Part shown: positions 10,538 through 22,772 of the stretch, piece after piece
Position numbering within the stretch: the stretch's first letter is position 1
How the letters are laid out: every line of letters starts with the position of its first letter
Source: Sedimenticola sp.
Lineage (GTDB): Bacteria > Pseudomonadota > Gammaproteobacteria > Chromatiales > Chromatiaceae
NCBI GenBank assembly: GCA_026196795.1
Contig: JAPHUE010000136.1
Span: 1 to 32,740 of the forward strand
Direction: 5' to 3'
Length of the DNA stretch: 32,740 bases
The notes under the pieces: model-generated
Told to the model about the DNA's origin: nothing
Database searches by the model: none
The model's input: the letters and a program-made list of their open reading frames with translations, nothing else
Made by a program: the position numbers and the translations under genes

Positions 10538-11161
10538 TCAGTTCTGCTCTTTTTCCCGAAGTAGCTTTATCTGGAAGAGTACATTACGCTCTTCTTCTTC
10601 CAATACGGATTCGATATAGCGGATGGTTGCGCGGTAACGGGGAATAATATTGTACTTGAGTGCATTGACTCGTTTTTGTGCCTTACGCTGCTCAGCCATT
10701 AATCGACTCAGGGCCATCTCTGACTCTCCCAGACGGGTTAGCATCTCAGTTGCTTCTGTGAGGCCTTTTCGCGTTTCATCGAAGCTGGTATCAGTACCTA
10801 ACAGTCCAACTGGTTCCATGGTGAGTGATTCTGTTGAGATGGCCGGGTATTCAACACCCATGCTACGTTTTGGAATAATATTGATCTGCAGCGTCGGTGC
10901 GATACCCAGTCCGGCCTGTTGGAGCGCCCGGCTACCCATGCGTAGATGTGCCACGCCCAGCCAGTGATAGGCCTCCTTGATAGAAGTGTGGGTCTCTTTT
11001 CTTAGTTTCTGATATTCACCCACCCGTTCATACACCAGCCGTGTCAGCAGTTCCCGTTTCCTTTCCAGCAAGGCATGACCATCTTCAAGAAAACGTACCT
11101 GCTTTTTCATCTCAAGCAGGGTGTTTTTTGTCGGGGGTACCTTTATAAGCTGCTGTGTCAT
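10538..11161 (-). CDS. ntpD: V/A-type ATPase subunit D
   Basis: 'VPPTKNTLLEMKKQVRFLEDGHALLERKRELLTRLVYE' at N-terminus and 'RVNALKYNIIPRYRATIRYIESVLEEEERN' at C-terminus. Confidence 0.92.
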   Translation of the reverse strand: MTQQLIKVPPTKNTLLEMKKQVRFLEDGHALLERKRELLTRLVYERVGEYQKLRKETHTSIKEAYHWLGVAHLRMGSRALQQAGLGIAPTLQINIIPKRSMGVEYPAISTESLTMEPVGLLGTDTSFDETRKGLTEATEMLTRLGESEMALSRLMAEQRKAQKRVNALKYNIIPRYRATIRYIESVLEEEERNVLFQIKLLREKEQN

Positions 11162-11180
11162 GGGGTCAGATTACTCCACA

Positions 11181-12560
11181 CTAATCCGCCGAACGATGGT
11201 ATTTAGCCAGATCGGTTTCCTGTACCCGGGTCAACATATCTTTCGGGAACATACTTAACAGTTCCCAGGCCAGATTGAGGGTTTCGATAATCGAGCGATC
11301 TTCATCTTCACCCTGGCCAACAAACTGACTATCAAAGGCCTCGGCAAATTTCAGATAGCGTCGATCACGTTCAGACAACTCTTCGGCACCAATAATAGCG
11401 GCCAGGTTACGTGTCTCCAGAGCCTTGGCATACATGGCATAGAGTTGGTTAGCCACTCGCGGGTGATCTTCGCGGGTATCATCCTTACCGATACCATCTT
11501 TCATCAAGCGGGAAAGAGAAGGAGAGATATGCACAGGTGGATAGACCCCCTGATTATGCAAATCTCTGCTTAATACGATCTGTCCCTCGGTGATGTAGCC
11601 CGTGAGGTCAGGAATCGGGTGAGTTATATCGTCTGACGGCATGGTGACAACCGGCACCATCGTAACAGAGCCGTGACGATCTTTGATTCTTCCGGAACGC
11701 TCATAGATCTCAGCCAGATCAGAATAGAGATAACCGGGATAGCCTTTACGAGAAGGGACGTCACCTTTGGCGGTGGCGACTTCACGCAACGCCTCGGCGT
11801 AGTTTGTCATGTCGGTAAGGACTACCAGAACATGTCGATCCAGATCAAAGGCGAGATACTCTGCTGCCGTCAAGGCGACACGGGGAAGTGCCAGGCGTTC
11901 TACGGGTGGATCATCAGCCAGGTTGATATACATCACCACATTGCCCAGCACACCAGAGTCGGCAAACTCTTCCTGAAAGAAGCGTGCATCGGCATAGGAG
12001 ACGCCCATGGCCGCAAACACAATGGAGAAGCTGCTCTCTTCATCCACCAGTTTGGCCTGTCGGACAATCTGTGCGGCGAGTCGGTTATGTGGCAGGCCTG
12101 ACGCAGAAAAAATCGGCAGCTTCTGTCCTCTTACCAGCGAGTTCAGTCCATCAATTGAGGAGATACCCGTCTGGATAAACTCCCGGGGATAGTTGCGGGC
12201 GGCAGGGTTGATGGCCGAGCCGTTAACATTTCGTCGAACATTGGAAAGAATGGGCGGACGATCATCTTTTGGATTACCTAAACCGTTAAAGATGCGACCG
12301 AGAATTTCTGGTGAGAGATTGATCTCCAGCGACTGATCGAGAAAACGAACCCAGGTGTTTTCCAGATCGAGATCGCCCGTGCCTTCGAAGACCTGTATCA
12401 ACGCCTCATGCTCACTGGTGCGAATGACCTGGCCGTTGCGTCGTCTATTGAGATGATCACGGATCACCACCTGGTCACCAAAGGCCACCTGGGGTGCATG
12501 CTCAACGACCAGCAGGCTGCCCTGTGCTGAACTGGCGGTTCGGTACTCTTTTGCACTCAT
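11181..12560 (-). CDS. ntpB: V/A-type ATPase subunit B
   Basis: 459 aa; 'QTGISSIDGLNSLVRGQKLPIFSASGLPHNRLAAQI', 'GYPGYLYSDLAEIYERSGR', 'VSPSLSRLMKDG'-type motif 'ISPSLSRLMKDGIG'. Confidence 0.95.
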   Translation of the reverse strand: MSAKEYRTASSAQGSLLVVEHAPQVAFGDQVVIRDHLNRRRNGQVIRTSEHEALIQVFEGTGDLDLENTWVRFLDQSLEINLSPEILGRIFNGLGNPKDDRPPILSNVRRNVNGSAINPAARNYPREFIQTGISSIDGLNSLVRGQKLPIFSASGLPHNRLAAQIVRQAKLVDEESSFSIVFAAMGVSYADARFFQEEFADSGVLGNVVMYINLADDPPVERLALPRVALTAAEYLAFDLDRHVLVVLTDMTNYAEALREVATAKGDVPSRKGYPGYLYSDLAEIYERSGRIKDRHGSVTMVPVVTMPSDDITHPIPDLTGYITEGQIVLSRDLHNQGVYPPVHISPSLSRLMKDGIGKDDTREDHPRVANQLYAMYAKALETRNLAAIIGAEELSERDRRYLKFAEAFDSQFVGQGEDEDRSIIETLNLAWELLSMFPKDMLTRVQETDLAKYHRSAD

Positions 12561-14356
12561 TGTGTGTGCTCCTTGAACTTGGCATATTCAAGACGGATCT
12601 TGCTGAAGGCCTCTTTGAATTCTTCCATAAGCAGCCGAATCTTGTCGCACTGTTCACTGCTGAAAGTCTGCTTGGCACGACGCGCCTTGGCCATCAGGGG
12701 AAGGTCGGTAAGCTCCTGTACTGATATGCCGAGTTCGATCAGTTCTGAGCCGCGCTCAAAGATCATCAGCACCATATCCAGTAACAGGAACTGTTTTTCG
12801 GGTGAGGAAAAGGTGTCCACCGGATCCAGTGCGCTCTGTTGTAGTACACCTTCTTTGATTAACGATGCCCCTTCCAGCTCCCAGCGTTGGGCGGAGGAGA
12901 GTGCTTCAGGACCGACCAGATTCACTATACGAGACAGCTCGGCATCTCTGGCGAGTAAGCCAAGGGCCTGTTTTCTTCTGTGCTCCCAATCCGGATTGAC
13001 CTCCTTGTGCCACCACTGCGCGGCGATACCCACATGCTCGGAGAAGCTGCCCACCCAGTCGATGGCGGGATAGTGACGTGCATCGGCCAACTCTTTTGAG
13101 AGTGCCCAGAAGGTCTGGATAATCTCTTTGGTGTGAGCAGTGACCGGTTCAGAAAAGTCACCACCGGGAGGAGATACAGCGCCGATCAGGGTGACAGATC
13201 CTTTGCCGCAGCCTTGGGATTCCACCCTGCCGGCACGCTCATAAAAGGCCGCCAGTCGTGAGGCGAGATAGGCTGGATAGCCATCTTCTACCGGCATCTG
13301 CCCCAGTCGGCCTGATACCTCGCGCAGGGCTTCTGCCCAGCGACTGGTGGAGTCGGCCAACATGACGACATCGTAGCCTTGGTCACGATAGTATTCGGCC
13401 ATAGTGATGCCGACGTAGATAGAGGCTTCGCGTGCGACAACCGGCATGTTGGAGGTATTGGCCACCAACAGGGTGCGCTCCATCAACTTGTGACCCGAGT
13501 AAGGGTCCTGCAGTTGTGGGAACGTCTCCAGCACATCGACCAGTTCATTGCCGCGCTCACCGCAGCCGACATAGATAACGATATCCGCATTCGACCAGCG
13601 GGCGATCTGTTGTTGTACGACGGTTTTCCCGGCACCGAAGGGGCCGGGTACGGCACTCTTTCCACCCTTGAGCAGTGGAAAGAAGGTATCAAGTATGCGC
13701 TGACCGGTGATCAGTGGAGAGAGACCGTGATCTCTACGCAGATAGGGCCGTGGCGTGCGTACGGGCCAGTGCTGGTAGAGCATCAGCTTGCTCTGTTTCC
13801 CTTCCGGTCGCTGCAGGCGGCCAATAGGGTCATCCAGACGATAATCACCCTCTGGCGCCAGTTCAGTAAGTACACCTGAAAGCGTAGGTGGCACCATGAT
13901 CCGATGCTCAATAATGGCACTCTCCTGCACGCGGCCAATCAGTTGTCCCGGTGATAGGGTGTTGCCAATTTCAAGGCCGGGCTCAGGAATAAAGTGCCAT
14001 GCTTTCTCCCGGTCCAGTGCCGGTAGATTGATACCGCGACCAATGTGATCACCCGACTCAATGAAAACTTTGTCCAGGGGGCGCTGAACGCCATCGAAAA
14101 TACTCCCCAACAGACCAGGCCCCAATTCAACAGAGAGGGGGCGGCCCAAGCCGACAACTTCTTCTCCTGGTCGAACACCTTCTGTGGATTCATAGGATTG
14201 CACTAAGGCGGTTTCACCCTTGAGGGCGATCACCTCGCCAAAAAGACCCATTTGACCTATCTTTACCTGCTCGCCATTACGGATGCCCGGTAAGTGAATA
14301 GTGAGGATCGGACCATTGATTTCACTGATGGTGCCCAGTTTGTCTTTGCTGCTCAT
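12557..14356 (-). CDS. ntpA: V/A-type ATPase catalytic subunit A
   Basis: 599 aa; P-loop 'GPFGAGKTVVQQQIARWSNADIVIYVGCGERGNE', 'LADSTSRWAEALREVSGRLGQMPVEDGYPAYL'; ATGA overlap with B. Confidence 0.96.
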   Translation of the reverse strand: MSSKDKLGTISEINGPILTIHLPGIRNGEQVKIGQMGLFGEVIALKGETALVQSYESTEGVRPGEEVVGLGRPLSVELGPGLLGSIFDGVQRPLDKVFIESGDHIGRGINLPALDREKAWHFIPEPGLEIGNTLSPGQLIGRVQESAIIEHRIMVPPTLSGVLTELAPEGDYRLDDPIGRLQRPEGKQSKLMLYQHWPVRTPRPYLRRDHGLSPLITGQRILDTFFPLLKGGKSAVPGPFGAGKTVVQQQIARWSNADIVIYVGCGERGNELVDVLETFPQLQDPYSGHKLMERTLLVANTSNMPVVAREASIYVGITMAEYYRDQGYDVVMLADSTSRWAEALREVSGRLGQMPVEDGYPAYLASRLAAFYERAGRVESQGCGKGSVTLIGAVSPPGGDFSEPVTAHTKEIIQTFWALSKELADARHYPAIDWVGSFSEHVGIAAQWWHKEVNPDWEHRRKQALGLLARDAELSRIVNLVGPEALSSAQRWELEGASLIKEGVLQQSALDPVDTFSSPEKQFLLLDMVLMIFERGSELIELGISVQELTDLPLMAKARRAKQTFSSEQCDKIRLLMEEFKEAFSKIRLEYAKFKEHTQ

Positions 14357-14997
14357 CGCATACTGCTCAGGTTATCTTGCACGGTACCTGCAGGGAAGAG
14401 GCGCTCCAGAATAGTCTGGTGTAAATTATCTGCCAGTCGTTCTTCTCTTCCTTCAAAGGTGTTGTCGAATCGAATAGATCTGTCATGGCTGCTGATGATT
14501 ACACCACCGATGGTGTTAATGGGTGATGTTTCAAGTGTGATGGTTTTATCTTGTACGGCCTCTTTGTAAAAGTTGTCCCAGATGGGTTGTAGTCTGTCGC
14601 GATCTCTCGTATTGAATGAGGCCCTCAGTTCTGTCTCTTTAAATGAACGTGCCGCTGAGGCCATCAATTGTTTCAGAAGCAGGAGGTAGCTGGTTTCATC
14701 CGCAACCAATTCGCCAATGCGATCGCGCAGTTGTTGCTGTACGGCAATAACCAGATTCCAGCGCAGGTGATCCATCTCTTTTTGCAGTTTCAGTTCATTT
14801 GCCTGTACCTGTCTGCGGAAGGTGCGCTCAGCCTTTGATTTGGCCAGCAGCACTTCCCGTTCTTCTCGCAGATGCAGTCGCTTGTGCGCCTCCTGCATAA
14901 TATTGTCACGACTGCGCTCTGCACGTTCACGATACTCAACGGCGAGTCTGTTGGCGCGACTGAGAATGGCAGTTTCTAGTTCTTTTACCTGTTCCAT
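14353..14997 (-). CDS. ntpE: V/A-type ATPase subunit E (peripheral stalk)
   Basis: Coiled-coil N-terminus and globular C-terminus 'NTIGGVIISSHDRSIRFDNTFEGREERL'; operon position; 4-bp overlap with A. Confidence 0.85.
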   Translation of the reverse strand: MEQVKELETAILSRANRLAVEYRERAERSRDNIMQEAHKRLHLREEREVLLAKSKAERTFRRQVQANELKLQKEMDHLRWNLVIAVQQQLRDRIGELVADETSYLLLLKQLMASAARSFKETELRASFNTRDRDRLQPIWDNFYKEAVQDKTITLETSPINTIGGVIISSHDRSIRFDNTFEGREERLADNLHQTILERLFPAGTVQDNLSSMR

Positions 14998-14999
14998 AA

Positions 15000-15350
15000 C
15001 TACTCCTGACTAAACTCCAGTTCACCACCGAGAAGCTGTTGCAGTCTGTCATCGATCTCACAATGAAAGTTGTCTGGTTCAGCCAGTGAGGGGACTTGAG
15101 TAATCACAATGTGCCCCCCCTCTGAACGGATTCGTTTGAGTAATACTGAGTCACAGTGAGCGAGTTTGTGTCCCAGGATGATGAAGGCCTTCTCCCGTTT
15201 TCTAAGTAACCGGGAAAGCTGTTGCTCCAGCATCTCCTGCGAGGGATCTGCCCAAGTCTCGAATCCGATCAGTTTGAAACCATCCGTCAGTGCCGCCTCG
15301 CCCATGAAGAGCATGCGGGTAGGGTGGTTGTTCTCTTCAATATGGATCAT
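15000..15350 (-). CDS. ntpF: V/A-type ATPase subunit F
   Basis: 116 aa with 'LMFMGEAALTDGFKLIGFETWADPSQEM...FIILGHKLA'; operon position. Confidence 0.82.
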   Translation of the reverse strand: MIHIEENNHPTRMLFMGEAALTDGFKLIGFETWADPSQEMLEQQLSRLLRKREKAFIILGHKLAHCDSVLLKRIRSEGGHIVITQVPSLAEPDNFHCEIDDRLQQLLGGELEFSQE

Positions 15351-15358
15351 GATATTTT

Positions 15359-15802
15359 TTAGAGCTTATCCAGCAACAGGATACTCATCACCAGGCCGTA
15401 AATGGCGATACCTTCTGCAAGTCCTAGATAGATCAACGTGCGACCGAATATCTCCGGCTTCTCAGCCAGTACCGCCAGTGAGGCCGCACCAATCGGTCCT
15501 ACCGCGATGCCCGCCGCTACGGTACTGAATGCGGTCGGTATGCCGACACCGATAATACCCAGGCCCATGCCCATGGATATGTCACCTGTGGCCGCGACAA
15601 CGGCTGGTGCGGCGGCGACTTCCTGGATCCCGAAAAACACCAGCAGGGCCTGAGCACCAACAAACAGAAACAGATTGCTGCCAATGGCTGTTTTGAACCA
15701 GCGTTTTCCGCTGATAGCCTTTGTGGGATGCAGTTCAATCATGACGCCAGTGACGATCAGACCGATAATGCCCAGGGTCATCAATGTAATCAGCCAGTAC
15801 AT
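15359..15802 (-). CDS. ntpK: V/A-type ATPase proteolipid subunit K (c-ring)
   Basis: C-terminal c-type hairpin 'GMGLGIIGVGIPTAFSTVAAGIAVGPIGAASLAVLAEKPEIFGRTLIYLGLAEGIAIYGLVMSILLL' with membrane Glu; two additional N-terminal TMs. Confidence 0.9.
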   Translation of the reverse strand: MYWLITLMTLGIIGLIVTGVMIELHPTKAISGKRWFKTAIGSNLFLFVGAQALLVFFGIQEVAAAPAVVAATGDISMGMGLGIIGVGIPTAFSTVAAGIAVGPIGAASLAVLAEKPEIFGRTLIYLGLAEGIAIYGLVMSILLLDKL

Positions 15803-15885
15803 GGTTTACTCCTTGAGTCCGTAATGTGAGATTGCTGTCTCTGTACCATTCGATAGCAGGCACAGATTGGTGTCTATGATAATGA

Positions 15886-17781
15886 TCATTTCAGACCCTC
15901 CAGTGAAAGTGTGAGGGGGGTGAACTCTTTTCCATCACCTGAGAAGAAGCGGGAGAAACCTTCATAGTATTCCAGTCGCAATGCCTGGATGGTCACGATG
16001 GCCCCTTCAAGGATCAGGATAAACAGATTGCCGCCAATCACCATCAGCCAGTGGCCGGTTCCTTCCATCATGTCAGCCAGGGTAAACACGGCAATTGCCA
16101 GTGCCACGTGATTCAGACTGAATGCGGCGACACGCAGGAATGAGAGGGTGTTGGATATATAACCGGTGAGGGTTTCAAAGGTTTCAATCGTGGCGACCAG
16201 CATGCGTTCACCGGGAGTGGCGTGAGTCTCGATCAGTTTGAAGGCAAGCAGGGTAAGCAGTGTAACAATACTCATGCTGGCGGGCGCCACGCCGAAGCTG
16301 CCGGTCTGGTAGAGATTATAGATGCCACCCAGCACACTGAGGTAGAGGGTAATGCTGACTACGCCATTGGTATCAAACAGTGCATGACTCAATTCACCCG
16401 AGACCAGACGGTTATGAATATACAGCAGGCTGATGACCACCATGAAACCAACGCCCCAGAGCAGCGCCATACTCAGCATATAGAGCGGGTCGGATAGTGG
16501 AGGCAACCAGATAGCATGGAACAGATGTTCGTAACCGAACAGGCTGCCATATAACACACCGAACAGCGTGGCAGACAGACCGGCACAGATCACAAAGGGG
16601 GTGAAACTATTGAGTTTGTTACGACCCAGCCACGCAGCGAGAACAATGACCAGACCATGCCCGACATCTCCAAACATCATGCCAAACATGGCAATGAACG
16701 AAAAGGCGAATACCAGAGTTGGGTTGATCTCGCCATAGCGGGGAATGCCATACTGTTTAACCAGTGATGAGAAGGGCGCGGTTAGCCAGTTTGTTGGCAG
16801 GAAGGTAGGTACCTGGCTATGTTGCTCTCGCGTAGGTGTGGTAGCTGTGATGCTAAATGGATGGGTTAACGTGCGACGCAGTTCCGCTTCGATCGTTGGC
16901 AATGTTTTAACCGGCACCCAGCCGGTGATGATCGCCAGTTCACCCACGCTGCGTGCCGCATCTTCCATGGCAACAAGGGGCTCAGCCATAATCAGAACAT
17001 CACGACACTGCTCCAGTGTAGGGCGAAGTTCATCCGCACAGGCGGACATGGCTTCTTCCCGCTGTTGTTTTTCCAGATCCAGACTCTGACGGCGCAGTTG
17101 CAGATCCTGCCGAATCCTTCCGGGTTCATCTTGCAACTCAGGGGGGATCTCCAGCGCATGGAAGCCTGCCGTATCAAGTACCGAGCTCAACTCGTTCTCA
17201 CGGTTACTTTTTGGACCGATAATAATCACATGGGTGTGTCCTGCATTCTCCATGTAACTGAACAGCAGATAATCAGCCAGACCGATGGCCTCTTTCAGTT
17301 GCGGTACATGGGTGCTGGGCAACATGCCGATATGCAGATCAAGAAACAGACGCTCGCCATGTAACAGGGCGAGATCAATATTCAGGCTTGAGAAATTGTC
17401 GAGTGCCTGTTCCAGTTGATCCAGCATGTGAGCTTCATCTGTCAGGCGTCGAAAATGTTCTTCATAGGCTGAGCAGCGCTCCCAGACCTCGCCCAGCCAT
17501 TCATTGGTCTGTTCAAGTTCAGCGTCGCTGATTACATGAGTAACCAATGATTTTCCTGGGGGCGTTAGTTGCACATGCGTTTCGATTTTCTGCAATCTTG
17601 AGCGGGCCTGCTGAAAGCGATCGCGATACTGTTTGCCCGGAATGTTGGGGAAACTTTCGGCATACTCATCGGCGCTGTTGGGGCTGAAGCTGCCCAGTTC
17701 TGCCAGGGTCAGGCTTGCCTGAGGCAGATCATCCAGCAACAGCTGGATCAGTACCTGTTTCATTGGTAGCGGCTTAAACAT
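15886..17781 (-). CDS. ntpI: V/A-type ATPase subunit I (a-type membrane subunit)
   Basis: 631 aa; 'FAFSFIAMFGMMFGDVGHGLVIVL', 'SNTLSFLRVAAFSLNHVALAIAVF', 'LEGAIVTIQALRLEYYEGFSRFFSGDGKEFTPL' with conserved Arg residues. Confidence 0.93.
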   Translation of the reverse strand: MFKPLPMKQVLIQLLLDDLPQASLTLAELGSFSPNSADEYAESFPNIPGKQYRDRFQQARSRLQKIETHVQLTPPGKSLVTHVISDAELEQTNEWLGEVWERCSAYEEHFRRLTDEAHMLDQLEQALDNFSSLNIDLALLHGERLFLDLHIGMLPSTHVPQLKEAIGLADYLLFSYMENAGHTHVIIIGPKSNRENELSSVLDTAGFHALEIPPELQDEPGRIRQDLQLRRQSLDLEKQQREEAMSACADELRPTLEQCRDVLIMAEPLVAMEDAARSVGELAIITGWVPVKTLPTIEAELRRTLTHPFSITATTPTREQHSQVPTFLPTNWLTAPFSSLVKQYGIPRYGEINPTLVFAFSFIAMFGMMFGDVGHGLVIVLAAWLGRNKLNSFTPFVICAGLSATLFGVLYGSLFGYEHLFHAIWLPPLSDPLYMLSMALLWGVGFMVVISLLYIHNRLVSGELSHALFDTNGVVSITLYLSVLGGIYNLYQTGSFGVAPASMSIVTLLTLLAFKLIETHATPGERMLVATIETFETLTGYISNTLSFLRVAAFSLNHVALAIAVFTLADMMEGTGHWLMVIGGNLFILILEGAIVTIQALRLEYYEGFSRFFSGDGKEFTPLTLSLEGLK

Positions 17782-18817
17782 GCCGTACCTCCGTGTTGAT
17801 GTCGGCGGCCTGGCGTATCAGTGCTTCATCCAGCTTGAGTACCCGTCCCTGAATAATGGCGAACACTCGTTTCAAATCCAGTTCACGCAGCATCAAATAC
17901 GCCAGTGCACGAGTTACTGCCGATGGGCTGAAGCTGAGGCAACGCCTGGCCTGATAAGAGAGCCGTTCTCCCATCGCCAGTTCAACCTCCATGATGTTTG
18001 TGCATTCGCCGAGGTGGTCATTTAATGGAGCGGGTAGTGCTTCCAGCATCTGTTCAATCTCCTGCATATTGACTAGTTGTTTTAACAGGTCAGATTGAAG
18101 CTGACGGCCTGAGGGTATCATCAGGTAGTAGGTCTCCGTCGGGGAGAGCATGTAGTTAAGCCGATAACGTAATAACCAGGGCAAGTTTTGACGATCAATC
18201 AGAGAGCCGATCAGACGCAACAGGGGAGGTTGTTCAGCACTATCGCAGGCTCGGGCGTGTTTAAGCAGGCCCGTGTAATAACGGTGGTCGATGGTTACAT
18301 CGAGTGAGAAAGATTCATTCTTCTCTTCAAACACCCGCCGAGCCTGTCGTGCTATGCCTTCATAAGGGGTCTGCTCCAGTTGCCGAAGCAGTTCCGGAAC
18401 ATTCTCGGTGCGCAGTAACTGCTCATGGGGCAGACTGATCAGTGCCGGGAGGATATGCAGGCTTTCGCGGATCTGATCATAAGGCAGATTATGCAGCTTG
18501 CCCCGAATCAATGCCTTGAGATTATAGAGTTCAAACTTGCGTGACCAGTAGATCAGGATATCCCTTGCACTGCCATTCAGAGGCCGCAACAGGATAGAGA
18601 GTTCGTTCATCAAGGTATTGATTAGTCCCCGCTCAATCGTCCTGTTGAGTTCGGCGTCGCTCAAGCCTCGTTCGGAGAGACCCTCCAGACCAAACATTTT
18701 TTCCAGTTGTTGAAGGGGGGTGTGCAGATAGGATTCGACTTCAGTGGCATCAATCAGCTGCCCCGCCATGACTGACGCACGGGTCTTGAGGTAGGCCTGG
18801 TTGATAGTGTTGTTCAT
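17774..18817 (-). CDS. ntpC: V/A-type ATPase subunit C (AC39/d-like)
   Basis: 'ILIYWSRKFELYNLKALIRGKLHNLPYDQI' AC39-like segment; 8-bp overlap with I; operon position. Confidence 0.82.
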   Translation of the reverse strand: MNNTINQAYLKTRASVMAGQLIDATEVESYLHTPLQQLEKMFGLEGLSERGLSDAELNRTIERGLINTLMNELSILLRPLNGSARDILIYWSRKFELYNLKALIRGKLHNLPYDQIRESLHILPALISLPHEQLLRTENVPELLRQLEQTPYEGIARQARRVFEEKNESFSLDVTIDHRYYTGLLKHARACDSAEQPPLLRLIGSLIDRQNLPWLLRYRLNYMLSPTETYYLMIPSGRQLQSDLLKQLVNMQEIEQMLEALPAPLNDHLGECTNIMEVELAMGERLSYQARRCLSFSPSAVTRALAYLMLRELDLKRVFAIIQGRVLKLDEALIRQAADINTEVRHV

Positions 18818-18835
18818 TATACTGCAATGAACTCC

Positions 18836-19162
18836 CTATGAGAGATCGGCATCTGGATCGATCAGTAGCTCAAATGCGGCGTTTAACGCCTCGGCTTCAC
18901 GGGTTTCTGCAATTGTCCGCAGTTGCATGTGGTGTTCGTCATAGCGTTTTTTTAATTCGCTGTTGGTCTGGATGGCGCGCTGTTCGGCCTTTTCAATGAA
19001 GGCGTTATGCAGTTCCGGTATGCGGGCCTCGAAACGCTCCTCTTCAGCATGGGCTTCATGTAGTGCCCCCTGGATGATACGTTCCCGTTCCTCATCAGCC
19101 TGAAGTACGATGGTTTCAGCCTTTTTTTCGGCATCCAGTAAGCGCTGTAGTGTCTCGTCCAT
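18836..19162 (-). CDS. V/A-type ATPase peripheral stalk subunit G/H-like
   Basis: 108 aa helical, charged ORF 'LLDAEKKAETIVLQADEERERIIQGALHEAHAEEERF' heading the ATPase operon. Confidence 0.7.
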   Translation of the reverse strand: MDETLQRLLDAEKKAETIVLQADEERERIIQGALHEAHAEEERFEARIPELHNAFIEKAEQRAIQTNSELKKRYDEHHMQLRTIAETREAEALNAAFELLIDPDADLS

Positions 19163-19384: not shown

Positions 19385-19456
19385 GCAGAACGTGGTACTT
19401 ATCGATCCTTGATTATACTTGACAGTAGTTCATAAAGAGGCGATTGTCTGGCTTAT

Positions 19457-19828
19457 ATGCGGCAATTCATGAACAGGCGGTTCTTAGTGATACTGGCGAT
19501 ACTCGTCAGTCTGCTTCCGTTCGGATTCAGTTTTGGCCTCACAACGGTTATCGGTGATAACCATACCGCTTCATCATCACATATGCGCATGATGGGATGC
19601 GATGATATTTCGCATGACAGTGGTTGTGTCGAAATGTCTGCAGAAACCCCACTACATGATGACTGCTGTAGCGACCATTGTGATTCATCATTTGGTTCAC
19701 AGCTCTGCGTGGGAAATGAGTACACTTTTGAGCTTCCCACGGGACATCTGTTTCAGACTTATTTCAGCGCAGGGATTTCTGGCCCGGTTCCATCCACACT
19801 GTTGCGACCCCCTCAGCTACACGCCTAA
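19457..19828 (+). CDS. Small exported Cys/His/Met-rich protein, possible metal-binding (CopL/DUF2946-like organisation)
   Basis: N-terminal hydrophobic segment 'RFLVILAILVSLLPFGFSFG', then 'SSSHMRMMGCDDISHDSGCVEM...HDDCCSDHCD...QLCV', C-terminal 'LLRPPQLHA'. Confidence 0.6.
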   Translation: MRQFMNRRFLVILAILVSLLPFGFSFGLTTVIGDNHTASSSHMRMMGCDDISHDSGCVEMSAETPLHDDCCSDHCDSSFGSQLCVGNEYTFELPTGHLFQTYFSAGISGPVPSTLLRPPQLHA

Positions 19829-19908
19829 AAGTTTTTTACTTTTCCTCTATTAGCCATTTTGGTTAAGTCGATTGATCTGGTCTATGACCAATTAATGGAG
19901 CGTGTGTT

Positions 19909-20397
19909 TTGAAATCTAATTTACTTATGCTGGGTTTACTCTCCCTGCTACTAGTGGCCTGTTCAGATGATCAGGCAACGGCATCGAATACCACAACAAC
20001 AAAAGCAGCGGCACAAGCATCAGCAGCACCTGCGAAGAACTGGTATCGATTCGAACAGGTCAGTGCCGGTGGCCGTATCTACCAAGAAAATTGTGCCGCC
20101 TGTCATGGCAAGCGGGGTGAGGGTGCCGAAAACTGGCGTAAGGCGGGGCCCGATGGTAAATATCCCGCGCCTCCGCTGAATGGTTCAGGACATGCCTGGC
20201 ACCATCCGCTCAATATTCTCTTTCATACCATCAAGAACGGTTCGCCCGGTGGACAGGGCGATATGCCTGCCTGGGGTGAAAAACTAAGTGATGAGGAGAT
20301 TATCTCGGTCATTGCCTGGTTCCAGTCGAAGTGGCCAAGAGAGATCTATCAGAGCTGGGTGCAGCGTGATGTGGCGGCAAGAGCAAATAAAGGTTAA
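19909..20397 (+). CDS. Monoheme cytochrome c, probable lipoprotein
   Basis: Lipobox-like 'LLSLLLVACSDD'; heme motif 'NCAACHGKRGEG'; distal Met 'GDMPAWGEKLSDEEIISVIAWFQSKWP'. Confidence 0.88.
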   Translation: MKSNLLMLGLLSLLLVACSDDQATASNTTTTKAAAQASAAPAKNWYRFEQVSAGGRIYQENCAACHGKRGEGAENWRKAGPDGKYPAPPLNGSGHAWHHPLNILFHTIKNGSPGGQGDMPAWGEKLSDEEIISVIAWFQSKWPREIYQSWVQRDVAARANKG

Positions 20398-20401
20398 TGC
20401 G

Positions 20402-20857
20402 ATGAAAAAAGGCGGCATGCTGGCTGTGATTATTCTGGCAGGTGCCGTGCTGTTCATCTTTGCCGGGGGTATACGTTGGTTGCCTTGGTTTGGAGGCATG
20501 ACAAGTCATCATAAAGGGATGATGAGTCGGCTGCCGGATAGCTATGCAGGACAAACCAATCCCCTCCGGGCTACCACTGCTGTTCTTGAGAAAGGATTAG
20601 AGCACTACAAGAGTTACTGCCTTGGTTGTCATGGTGTCAACGGTCGGGGAGATGGGCCGGCGGGTGCCGGGTTGATTCCCCCACCTGCCGATCTTGCTTT
20701 TGTCATGCGCATGCCGATGGCACGTGATGACTATCTTTACTGGAAGATCAGTGAAGGTGGGAGCTCCGTCGGCTCTGCCATGCCGGCCTTCAAAACAGTT
20801 CTTTCAGAGACAGACCGCTGGGCGCTTCTGAACTACCTGCGCAGCGGATTGAAATAG
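20402..20857 (+). CDS. Monoheme cytochrome c, membrane-anchored
   Basis: N-terminal TM, 'YCLGCHGVNGRGDGPAGAGL', 'SAMPAFKTVLSETDRWALLNYLRS'; ATG 20402 preferred over the longer ORF. Confidence 0.87.
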   Translation: MKKGGMLAVIILAGAVLFIFAGGIRWLPWFGGMTSHHKGMMSRLPDSYAGQTNPLRATTAVLEKGLEHYKSYCLGCHGVNGRGDGPAGAGLIPPPADLAFVMRMPMARDDYLYWKISEGGSSVGSAMPAFKTVLSETDRWALLNYLRSGLK

Positions 20858-20873
20858 AGATGTGAGGCTATAG

Positions 20874-21347
20874 ATGAACAAAATTAACAGACCCTATCCA
20901 TTCATATTACTTCTTGTTGTGCTGGCCTTAGCCATGATGCCGGTAGCACTGATGGCACATGGCAAGGCCACAGGTATTGTGAAAGAGCGAATGGAATTGA
21001 TGAAAAAGATTGGTAAGCAGATGCGCTCAATCAGCATTATGAAAAAAGGAAAAATCCCATTTAATGCGGAGAAAATTAGTAATCATGCCGAAACTATCAG
21101 CCACTCTTCCAGTAAGATTCCTGCGCTGTTCCCGGAGGGTAGTTTGCAAAAACCAACAGAGGCATTGCCCGCTATCTGGGAGCAGTGGGATCAGTTTTTA
21201 TACTTAACAGATCAGTTGAAACTTGAAGCAGTTGCTTTGCAGGAAGTGGCAAAGCAGGAAGATAAACAAGCCATACTTGTGCAGTTTGAAAAGCTCGGAA
21301 AGACGTGTAACGGATGCCATCAAGATTTCAGGGTTGAGGATGATTAA
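20874..21347 (+). CDS. Cytochrome c'-like (class II, C-terminal heme motif)
   Basis: Signal peptide-like N-terminus ending 'LMAHGKATGIVKERMELMKKIGKQM'; C-terminal 'LGKTCNGCHQDFRV'. Confidence 0.88.
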   Translation: MNKINRPYPFILLLVVLALAMMPVALMAHGKATGIVKERMELMKKIGKQMRSISIMKKGKIPFNAEKISNHAETISHSSSKIPALFPEGSLQKPTEALPAIWEQWDQFLYLTDQLKLEAVALQEVAKQEDKQAILVQFEKLGKTCNGCHQDFRVEDD

Positions 21348-21391
21348 GCCAGGATTACTATTGTCTTGATAAACCAACGTGAGGATAGCTA

Positions 21392-21772
21392 ATGAGCAGA
21401 GATCAGTTCATTAAGATGCGCGGGGCATGGGATACCCGTCACTGGATCAGTGTGCCAGGTCTCTCCCATCCGGCGGATGCCTTGCAGCTGGAAGCGTCAC
21501 TCTCAGCACTGCAGGGCATGAATCGGGTTGTCATTTATCCTGAGCAGCAAAGAATACGTGTTACCTATGATCAGACCCGACTGGATTATCAACATATACT
21601 CGAGCAGCTTGAGATGATTGGATTTCCCGCTTCAACAGGTTGGTGGTCTCTACGTAAAGCAGGCTGGTTCCAATATCTGGATCAGACGGCCCGGGAAAAT
21701 GCGCGAGCACCTGAGCCGCCTTGCTGTAGCAATCCCAAGGGAATAGGTGGTCGACATGAACGAAAAAAGTAA
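21392..21772 (+). CDS. Heavy-metal-associated (HMA)-like fold protein lacking the canonical CxxC
   Basis: 'WISVPGLSHPADALQLEASLSALQGMNRVVIYPEQQRIRVTYDQTRLDYQHILEQLEMIGFP' follows the beta-alpha-beta-beta-alpha-beta HMA pattern; C-terminal 'EPPCCSNPKG'. Confidence 0.6.
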   Translation: MSRDQFIKMRGAWDTRHWISVPGLSHPADALQLEASLSALQGMNRVVIYPEQQRIRVTYDQTRLDYQHILEQLEMIGFPASTGWWSLRKAGWFQYLDQTARENARAPEPPCCSNPKGIGGRHERKK

Positions 21773-21809
21773 TAACTGGAATGGTTAACCAAACGTACAG
21801 GTGGAATAG

Positions 21810-22223
21810 ATGACACGTCTAATCGTTATGTTGTTATTTCTATTGCAAGGTTATGCCGTCGTGGCTGCTACAGGACAACCTGCAACCCCAGATGAAATTT
21901 CAAAAGGCAGAACGCTGTATGAACGCTTCTGCCTCTCCTGTCATGGTGAGAACGGAGTGGGAGAATCGCCCATACCGAAATATATACGGGCGCCTGGTTA
22001 TCTCACCGCTATGCCATTAAATGAAACATCCCATGCATGGCATCATAGTGATGAGCAGTTGGTAGATACTATTTTAAACGGGCTTCAACGGACAAAAAGA
22101 ATGCCGTCCTGGAAAGGGGTGTTGAGTGAAGCAGAAGCGCGATCCGTGGTGGGTTATATCAAGAGTCTCTGGAGCTCCAGAATAATTGCTTGCCAGGGTC
22201 CCAGGCATATGAGCTGTATGTAG
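21810..22223 (+). CDS. Monoheme cytochrome c
   Basis: Signal peptide-like N-terminus; 'FCLSCHGENGVGES'; 'RMPSWKGVLSEAEARSVVGYIKSLW'. Confidence 0.87.
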   Translation: MTRLIVMLLFLLQGYAVVAATGQPATPDEISKGRTLYERFCLSCHGENGVGESPIPKYIRAPGYLTAMPLNETSHAWHHSDEQLVDTILNGLQRTKRMPSWKGVLSEAEARSVVGYIKSLWSSRIIACQGPRHMSCM

Positions 22224-22337: not shown

Positions 22338-22772
22338 ATGTCTGTTCGATTATCTGAATTCAGCTGGAAGGCGCTATTGGCAGGCAGTATCACTATTATC
22401 CTGTTTGGGCTATTGATGCAGCTTGTCTTTGTGAGTTTTGCAGCTGGGCAGATGATCTTTGTTCAGCACTTTCCAGGCTGGGCAAATTCGACCATGACCG
22501 TTGTTTATATCCTTGGCCTGCTGTTGTTCCTGCTTACCATGGCGCTGGGCGGCTATATAACTGCGCGCATTGCAGCCCGTAGGATCATGCTGCATGGGGT
22601 TCTGGTTGCTGTGTTGGCTGGCGGTGTCTCTTTTGCACAATCACTCAGCGTCGGTGGGCTCACGCTGTTTGGCGCACTGTTTTTTATTCTTGGTATTCCT
22701 TTCACCCTGCTGGGGTGTTGGTTTTGGCGGAGACAATCAAAAACCACACCCAATAGTCCAGCCGCTTTGTAA
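22338..22772 (+). CDS. Four-TM membrane protein, possibly TIGR04086-like
   Basis: Hydrophobic segments throughout, 'ALGGYITARIAARRIMLHGVLVAVLAG'. Confidence 0.55.
   Translation: MSVRLSEFSWKALLAGSITIILFGLLMQLVFVSFAAGQMIFVQHFPGWANSTMTVVYILGLLLFLLTMALGGYITARIAARRIMLHGVLVAVLAGGVSFAQSLSVGGLTLFGALFFILGIPFTLLGCWFWRRQSKTTPNSPAAL

What the first reader, a model, noticed from the sequence alone, without database searches (positions are those of the whole stretch)
19457..22223. Six-gene metal/cytochrome cluster: Cys/His/Met-rich exported protein, three monoheme c cytochromes, cytochrome c' and an HMA-like protein
All genes are on one strand with short gaps. Cytochromes of the 'HAWHHP...MPAWGEKLSDEEI' type are, as I recall, often near copper-resistance genes, and the first gene and HMA-like gene are metal-binding in character. 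No copper ATPase, multicopper oxidase or regulator is present, so this could be a periplasmic metal-response or electron-transfer system not described as a unit.
Basis: partly seen in the sequence, partly recalled or inferred. Interest (0 to 1): 0.6.

Follow-up and report, generated by a model that had tools for sequence, protein, structure and literature searches.

The report
Copper-sensing leader heading cytochrome gene cluster
The six genes form a copper-handling operon in a Sedimenticola bacterium, in which the first gene looks like a small self-stalling "sensor" peptide that probably lets copper switch on translation of unusual histidine-rich c-type cytochromes, a class of target not named for such sensors in the papers I read.

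Summary
The window is a Sedimenticola contig. Genes g1-g6 (plus a seventh, 22338-22772) form a discrete cassette between a V-ATPase operon and a thiolase. It is kept in 8 of 9 genomes of the genus with g1, g2 and g5 invariant, and is cleanly missing from the ninth. The HxWHH cytochrome family of g2 lies within about 1.5 kb of copper genes in 21 of 29 of its best loci across the class (control 0 of 14). In congeners, paralogs of g5 and g6 sit inside complete copper islands. Folding shows that a ribosome parked at the RPP motif would uncover the next gene's start: 5.1 kcal/mol in 10 distant loci and about 2 in Sedimenticola, against 0.07 in 51 ordinary gene pairs (p = 6e-7). Copper dependence, arrest and redox role are inferred, not shown. 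New variant of a known kind.

The parts
19418..19447 (+). Putative promoter of g1: CTTGACA (19418-19424), 17-nt spacer, GATTGT (19442-19447)
   Evidence: CTTGACA is identical in all 8 Sedimenticola loci, with a conserved GA.TGT downstream; the consensus scan did not score it as sigma-70, so tentative
19457..19828 (+). g1: CutF-like exported leader peptide, 123 aa, putative copper sensor and arrest peptide
   Evidence: Signal-peptide-like N-terminus, invariant Cys and C-terminal LL(R/H)PP in 8 orthologs; homologs head copper operons in other genera
19667..19681 (+). g1 C71xxxC75, putative copper site
   Evidence: Invariant in 8 orthologs; the same CxxxC as CutF C69-C73 (PMC8456105)
19805..19813 (+). 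g1 R117-P118-P119, putative ribosome-stalling motif, 4 residues before the stop
   Evidence: P118 P119 invariant; RPP present in all distant g1-like leaders checked, against 22 of 498 control ORFs with (R/H)PP in the last 15 residues
19812..19824 (+). Tail of g1 predicted to pair with the g2 ribosome-binding region (anti-SD arm)
   Evidence: Minimum-free-energy fold; covering it lowers the SD opening cost from 10.1 to 6.3 kcal/mol in the window; family-wide test against controls
19878..19890 (+). 5-bp hairpin TGGTC-TAT-GACCA just upstream of the g2 SD
   Evidence: 92.5% of pair cells kept in 8 sequences but only one compensatory pair: weak
19897..19911 (+). g2 Shine-Dalgarno GGAG (19897-19900) and TTG start (19909-19911)
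   Evidence: GGAG at -12 and a TTG start in all 8 Sedimenticola loci
19909..20397 (+). g2: lipoprotein-type monoheme cytochrome c with an added HxWHH motif
   Evidence: PF13442 E 1.8e-15; C62xxCH, H95, W97, H98 and H99 invariant in 13 members; lipobox-like LVAC read from the sequence
20402..20857 (+). g3: membrane-anchored monoheme cytochrome c with an HHxGM motif
   Evidence: PF13442 E 9e-12; motif seen in relatives
20874..21347 (+). g4: cytochrome c'
   Evidence: PF01322 E 4.1e-33
21392..21772 (+). g5: HMA-fold protein without CxxC, with a C-terminal CC
   Evidence: paralogs follow P1B ATPases in copper islands
21810..22223 (+). g6: monoheme cytochrome c with HxWHH and the C-terminus CQGPxHMxCM
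   Evidence: PF13442 E 2.7e-13; C-terminus shared by the close g6 homologs read in full
22338..22772 (+). g7: hydrophobic protein that follows g6 in several genomes
   Evidence: Conserved in L002, L003, L040 and L047; no confident family

Best explanation
The cluster is a copper-homeostasis operon whose first gene, g1, is a CutF-like translated leader. g1 is exported as it is made. Copper binding at its CxxxC, while that site sits in or near the translocon, makes the ribosome pause at the LLRPP motif a few codons before the stop. The paused ribosome covers the g1 tail that otherwise pairs with the Shine-Dalgarno region of g2, so g2 (weak TTG start) and the genes behind it are translated. The products are periplasmic c cytochromes carrying extra His/Met/Cys clusters, cytochrome c' and an HMA-like protein. 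They bind and/or redox-buffer copper and pass electrons to the respiratory chain. Shown here: gene content, conservation, motifs, copper gene neighbourhoods, and the computed tail/SD occlusion. Inferred: arrest, copper as the signal, the sign of the response (on with copper), and the redox role.
For: g1 meets the protein criteria used to define CutF-like leaders in PMC9973294 (<150 aa, signal peptide, PP within 15 residues of the end, co-directional gene within 1000 nt). CxxxC and the Cys-to-PP distance (43; 40-44 in CxxxC homologs) match CutF (41 from the residue numbers in PMC8456105), not the longer distance of the RAPP leader in the same genome (47). Homologous leaders head MCO, HxWHH cytochrome, DUF411 and cytochrome c' operons. 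The HxWHH cytochrome family is copper-associated in 21 of 29 loci against 0 of 14 controls. Covering the tail opens the next SD by 5.1 kcal/mol (10 distant loci) and about 2.1 (8 Sedimenticola), against 0.07 in 51 control pairs.
Against: No expression, arrest or copper-binding data. Within Sedimenticola the tail/SD pairing does not exceed synonymous tails (mean z 0.54), and two of eight orthologs show no gain on covering. The motif is LRPP, not the proven RAPP/RGPP. g1 does not match DUF2946. The CutF paper itself could not show arrest directly.
Confidence: 0.68

Rival explanations
1. g1 works like CruR, not CutF: the ribosome stalls at RPP when copper is scarce and copper relieves the stall, so the operon is turned off by copper (a copper-scarcity or cytochrome-supply operon).
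For: CruR, a related leader with a C-terminal RAPP, has this sign (PMC9426467). The tail/SD occlusion found here works equally well with either sign.
Against: CxxxC and spacing are of CutF type. The targets' relatives sit with detoxification genes (MCO, Cus, P1B, CopG), not copper uptake. The short gap and SD masking fit translational control, not the long rho-dependent gap of CruR.
Confidence: 0.15
2. g1 is simply a periplasmic copper-binding or chaperone protein, and its C-terminal prolines serve protein contacts; the tail/SD pairing is a by-product of proline codons.
For: CutF was first proposed to be such a chaperone (PMC8456105). Sedimenticola tails do not beat synonymous tails.
Against: The PP motif stays 2-14 residues from the stop at a fixed distance from Cys in diverged homologs. 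Distant loci beat synonymous tails (mean z 1.76 against -0.17 in controls, p 8e-5).
Confidence: 0.14
3. The cytochromes are ordinary electron carriers of a respiratory branch, and copper gene proximity in other genomes is incidental to this cluster.
For: Best sequence matches in solved structures are CcoP-type and c6/cL cytochromes. There is no copper efflux gene in the window.
Against: The HxWHH family recurs beside MCO, CopB, CopG, Cus and P1B genes in many families. Extra His/Met/Cys motifs are conserved. The cassette is headed by a copper-type leader.
Confidence: 0.12

Closest known systems
CutF-cutO of Rhodobacter capsulatus and CutF-like leaders (PMC9973294, PMC8456105)
   Same: Small exported leader, CxxxC, C-terminal PP motif about 41-43 residues later, short gap, SD of the next gene masked by RNA pairing, copper genes downstream.
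   Different: The first target is a c-type cytochrome lipoprotein, not a multicopper oxidase. The motif is LLRPP (CutF: EGPPPRL). Predicted masking uses the leader's own last codons rather than an intergenic stem-loop. No copper response measured.
CruR / DUF2946 leaders (PMC9426467, PMC12992588)
   Same: Cys-pair leader with a C-terminal PP arrest motif at a fixed distance, heading copper operons.
   Different: CruR has CxxC and RAPP and acts by rho-dependent termination with the opposite sign; g1 is not matched by PF11162.
Copper-resistance islands with CopA-type MCO, CopB, CueR and P1B ATPase, plus HxWHH cytochromes (this work)
   Same: Share g5-, g6- and g2-type proteins and often a g1-like leader.
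   Different: The window cassette has only leader, cytochromes and HMA-like protein, with no ATPase, MCO, efflux or MerR gene.

Membership tests
CutF-like leader (criteria of PMC9973294) | Protein under 150 aa with N-terminal Sec-type signal peptide | tested here: met
   122-126 aa, basic N-terminus plus hydrophobic stretch in all 8 orthologs; signal peptide judged by eye, no SignalP
CutF-like leader (criteria of PMC9973294) | PP motif within the last 15 residues | tested here: met
   P118-P119, 4-7 residues before the end in all 8
CutF-like leader (criteria of PMC9973294) | Cysteine metal-site motif (CxxxC in CutF) | tested here: met
   C71xxxC75 invariant
CutF-like leader (criteria of PMC9973294) | Co-directional downstream gene within 1000 nt, copper-related | tested here: met
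   80 nt to g2, whose family is copper-associated
CutF-like leader (criteria of PMC9973294) | RNA pairing that masks the next SD and is opened by leader translation | tested here: inconclusive
   Supported family-wide against controls but not beyond synonymous expectation in Sedimenticola; no experiment
CutF-like leader (criteria of PMC9973294) | Copper-dependent stalling and target expression | not testable with these tools
   Needs reporter and toeprint experiments
DUF2946 / CruR | Match to PF11162 above cut-off | tested here: not met
   No match for g1 at E up to 1; only one of nine distant homologs scanned has even a trace, E 0.78
DUF2946 / CruR | CxxC and RAPP about 45 residues apart | tested here: not met
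   g1 has CxxxC and LRPP, shorter distance
HMA metallochaperone (g5) | Ferredoxin-like HMA fold | tested here: met
   Profile and fold matches to MerP, CopZ, ATP7B
HMA metallochaperone (g5) | CxxC metal site in the first loop | tested here: not met
   Absent; invariant CC near the C-terminus instead
Classical copper-resistance operon (cop/cue/cus) | Contains a copper ATPase, MCO, Cus efflux or CueR/CopRS gene | tested here: not met
   None found among the cluster's genes; relatives of its genes lie beside such genes elsewhere

The most novel reading that the evidence does not exclude
A heme-based periplasmic copper detoxification system: HxWHH cytochromes take electrons from Cu(I) and pass them to respiration, doing without oxygen what multicopper oxidases do with it, under direct translational copper sensing by a leader peptide. 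It may be the only periplasmic copper-oxidising system in members that lack a CopA-type MCO (none found in G008, 99% complete, or G006, 90%).
Probability: 0.27. Interest if true: 0.82.

Novelty: new variant of a known kind. Interest (0 to 1): 0.58.

Why it matters
If true, it extends nascent-chain copper sensing, known from only a few studied cases, to a leader family outside DUF2946 and to a new kind of target, c-type cytochromes. It offers a simple anti-SD design in which the sensor's own last codons hide the next gene's start. It also gives a widespread, unnamed HxWHH cytochrome family (99 of 369 sampled genomes of the class) a testable job in copper handling.

Tried and rejected
DUF2946 membership of g1: rejected. 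A conserved SD-proximal hairpin as the switch: only one compensatory pair, so not relied on. RNAalifold on ten sequences gave a weak consensus, -3.9 kcal/mol. Nucleotide-level selection for tail/SD pairing within Sedimenticola alone: not significant against synonymous tails. Rfam gave nothing above its gathering score. The sigma-70 scan found no promoter before g1. Two family scans failed on a wrong g3 start and were repeated.

Full report
Identity and anatomy. The window is contig C291 of a 2.77-Mb, 78% complete genome. Its genus-mates in the collections are Sedimenticola. The six reported ORFs are real and co-directional, with gaps of 80, 4, 16, 44 and 37 nt. Domain searches confirm three monoheme c cytochromes and a cytochrome c'. 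g5 is an HMA-fold protein by profile and predicted structure, but lacks the CxxC site and has an invariant CC near its end. A seventh hydrophobic gene follows at 22338-22772.

Conservation. In eight of nine genomes of the genus the cluster is present, and wherever the flanks could be read it sits between the same V-type ATPase operon and the same thiolase gene. g1, g2 and g5 are always present; g3, g4, g6 and g7 vary. In G004, a two-contig genome rated 100% complete, the ATPase and thiolase regions stand close together without the cassette. So this is a discrete, dispensable unit.

Copper link. In congeners, paralogs of g5 and g6 lie inside textbook copper islands: CopA-type multicopper oxidase, CopB, MerR/CueR regulator, P1B ATPase, SHOCT protein, g5-like, TVP38, and in one island a g6-like cytochrome (gene names there are my reading of the translations, with the MCO confirmed by TIGR01480). 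A profile of the g2 family (13 members, invariant heme site plus HxWHH) found matches in 99 of 369 genomes of the class. Of the 29 best loci other than the window, 21 have MCO, CopB, DUF411, DUF4399, CusA, P1B ATPase or CueR homologs within the roughly 1.5-kb flanks. None of 14 unrelated control loci do. Five further loci brought in by the HMA search were left out of that control because that search retrieves HMA-bearing ATPases by design; three of those five had a P1B match.

g1 as a leader peptide. All eight Sedimenticola g1 proteins share four Cys including C71xxxC75 and the tail (G/D)P(V/I)PxxLL(R/H)PP, with no insertion between them; the tail ends 4-7 residues before the stop. A g1 profile found relatives in other genera of the family. 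They read (L/F/Y/Q)RPP near the end; the CxxxC leaders have a Cys-to-PP distance of 40-44. They are followed by MCO genes, HxWHH cytochromes, DUF411, cytochrome c' and similar genes. C-terminal (R/H)PP occurs in 22 of 498 control ORFs, a set that still contains some leaders. These are the traits of CutF-like leaders (PMC9973294, PMC8456105). CutF's published residue numbers give a distance of 41. DUF2946/CruR leaders (PMC9426467) have CxxC, RAPP and a longer distance. g1 does not match PF11162, whereas a separate gene in the same genome does so just below the cut-off and has RAPP (L097).

RNA switch. The next gene, g2, starts with TTG in all eight genomes, with GGAG at -12. In the window's predicted fold the last g1 codons pair with the g2 start region. 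I compared the cost of opening SD-to-start in the free mRNA with that when a ribosome covers the tail. The ribosome was placed with the first Pro of the PP pair in the P-site, as toeprinted for CruR (PMC12992588). The window falls from 10.1 to 6.3 kcal/mol. Ten leader loci from other genera or other copper loci of the family fall by 5.1 on average; the eight Sedimenticola g1 loci fall by about 2.1. In 51 ordinary adjacent gene pairs the same operation changes nothing (0.07 +/- 1.35). One-sided rank tests give p 2e-6 for the distant set, 0.003 for Sedimenticola and 6e-7 for all 18. Against synonymous tails, which keep the protein, the distant loci occlude more than expected (mean z 1.76; controls -0.17; p 8e-5), but Sedimenticola does not (mean z 0.54). 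Part of the effect thus follows from the proline codons themselves. Caveats: start codons in the distant loci were chosen by rule, control pairs lacked PP tails, the values for the leader sets were entered in rounded form, and related sequences are not independent.

Mechanism proposed. Copper in the periplasm binds nascent g1 at CxxxC, the ribosome pauses at RPP, the pause hides the anti-SD arm, and g2 and following genes are made. The sign of the response is inferred from CutF and from the copper-resistance character of the targets; CruR shows that the opposite sign is possible. The cytochromes carry extra conserved metal-type ligands: HxWHH in g2 and g6, HHxGM in g3, CQGPxHMxCM in g6. A role as copper-binding redox proteins is plausible. 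A CopA-type MCO is not found in three genomes that carry the cassette and were searched at adequate depth, two of them at least 90% complete, so an oxygen-independent substitute is conceivable. This last step is speculation.

Verdict. A copper operon with a CutF-like leader and an unusual cytochrome output: a new variant of a known kind. That cytochromes are not named as targets of CutF-like leaders rests on the passages of the main texts I read; supplements could not be opened.

Noticed in passing
19418-19447: CTTGACA is identical upstream of g1 in all 8 Sedimenticola loci, with GA.TGT 17 nt on and only about 9 nt before the g1 ATG in the window; this would give a very short or leaderless 5' end.
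   Followed up: partly
L097:3001-3321 (G000:C134): The same genome has a second leader-like gene, CxxC...RAPP (DUF2946-like, just below cut-off), upstream of a His-rich DUF2796-like protein and an ABC transporter, possibly another metal-uptake operon under arrest-peptide control.
   Followed up: no
L041:13041-13448 (-): A small exported ORF with a Pro-rich tail (PPVPIPPRLSF) lies directly upstream of a CusCBA-like efflux operon in G027; no Pfam match.
   Followed up: partly
21810-22223: g6 and its homologs end in CQGPxHMxCM, a possible copper site added to a c-type cytochrome; the same ending is kept in genes from several genera.
   Followed up: partly
10538-19162 (-): A V/A-type ATPase operon in a gammaproteobacterium flanks the cluster and is conserved next to it across the genus.
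   Followed up: no
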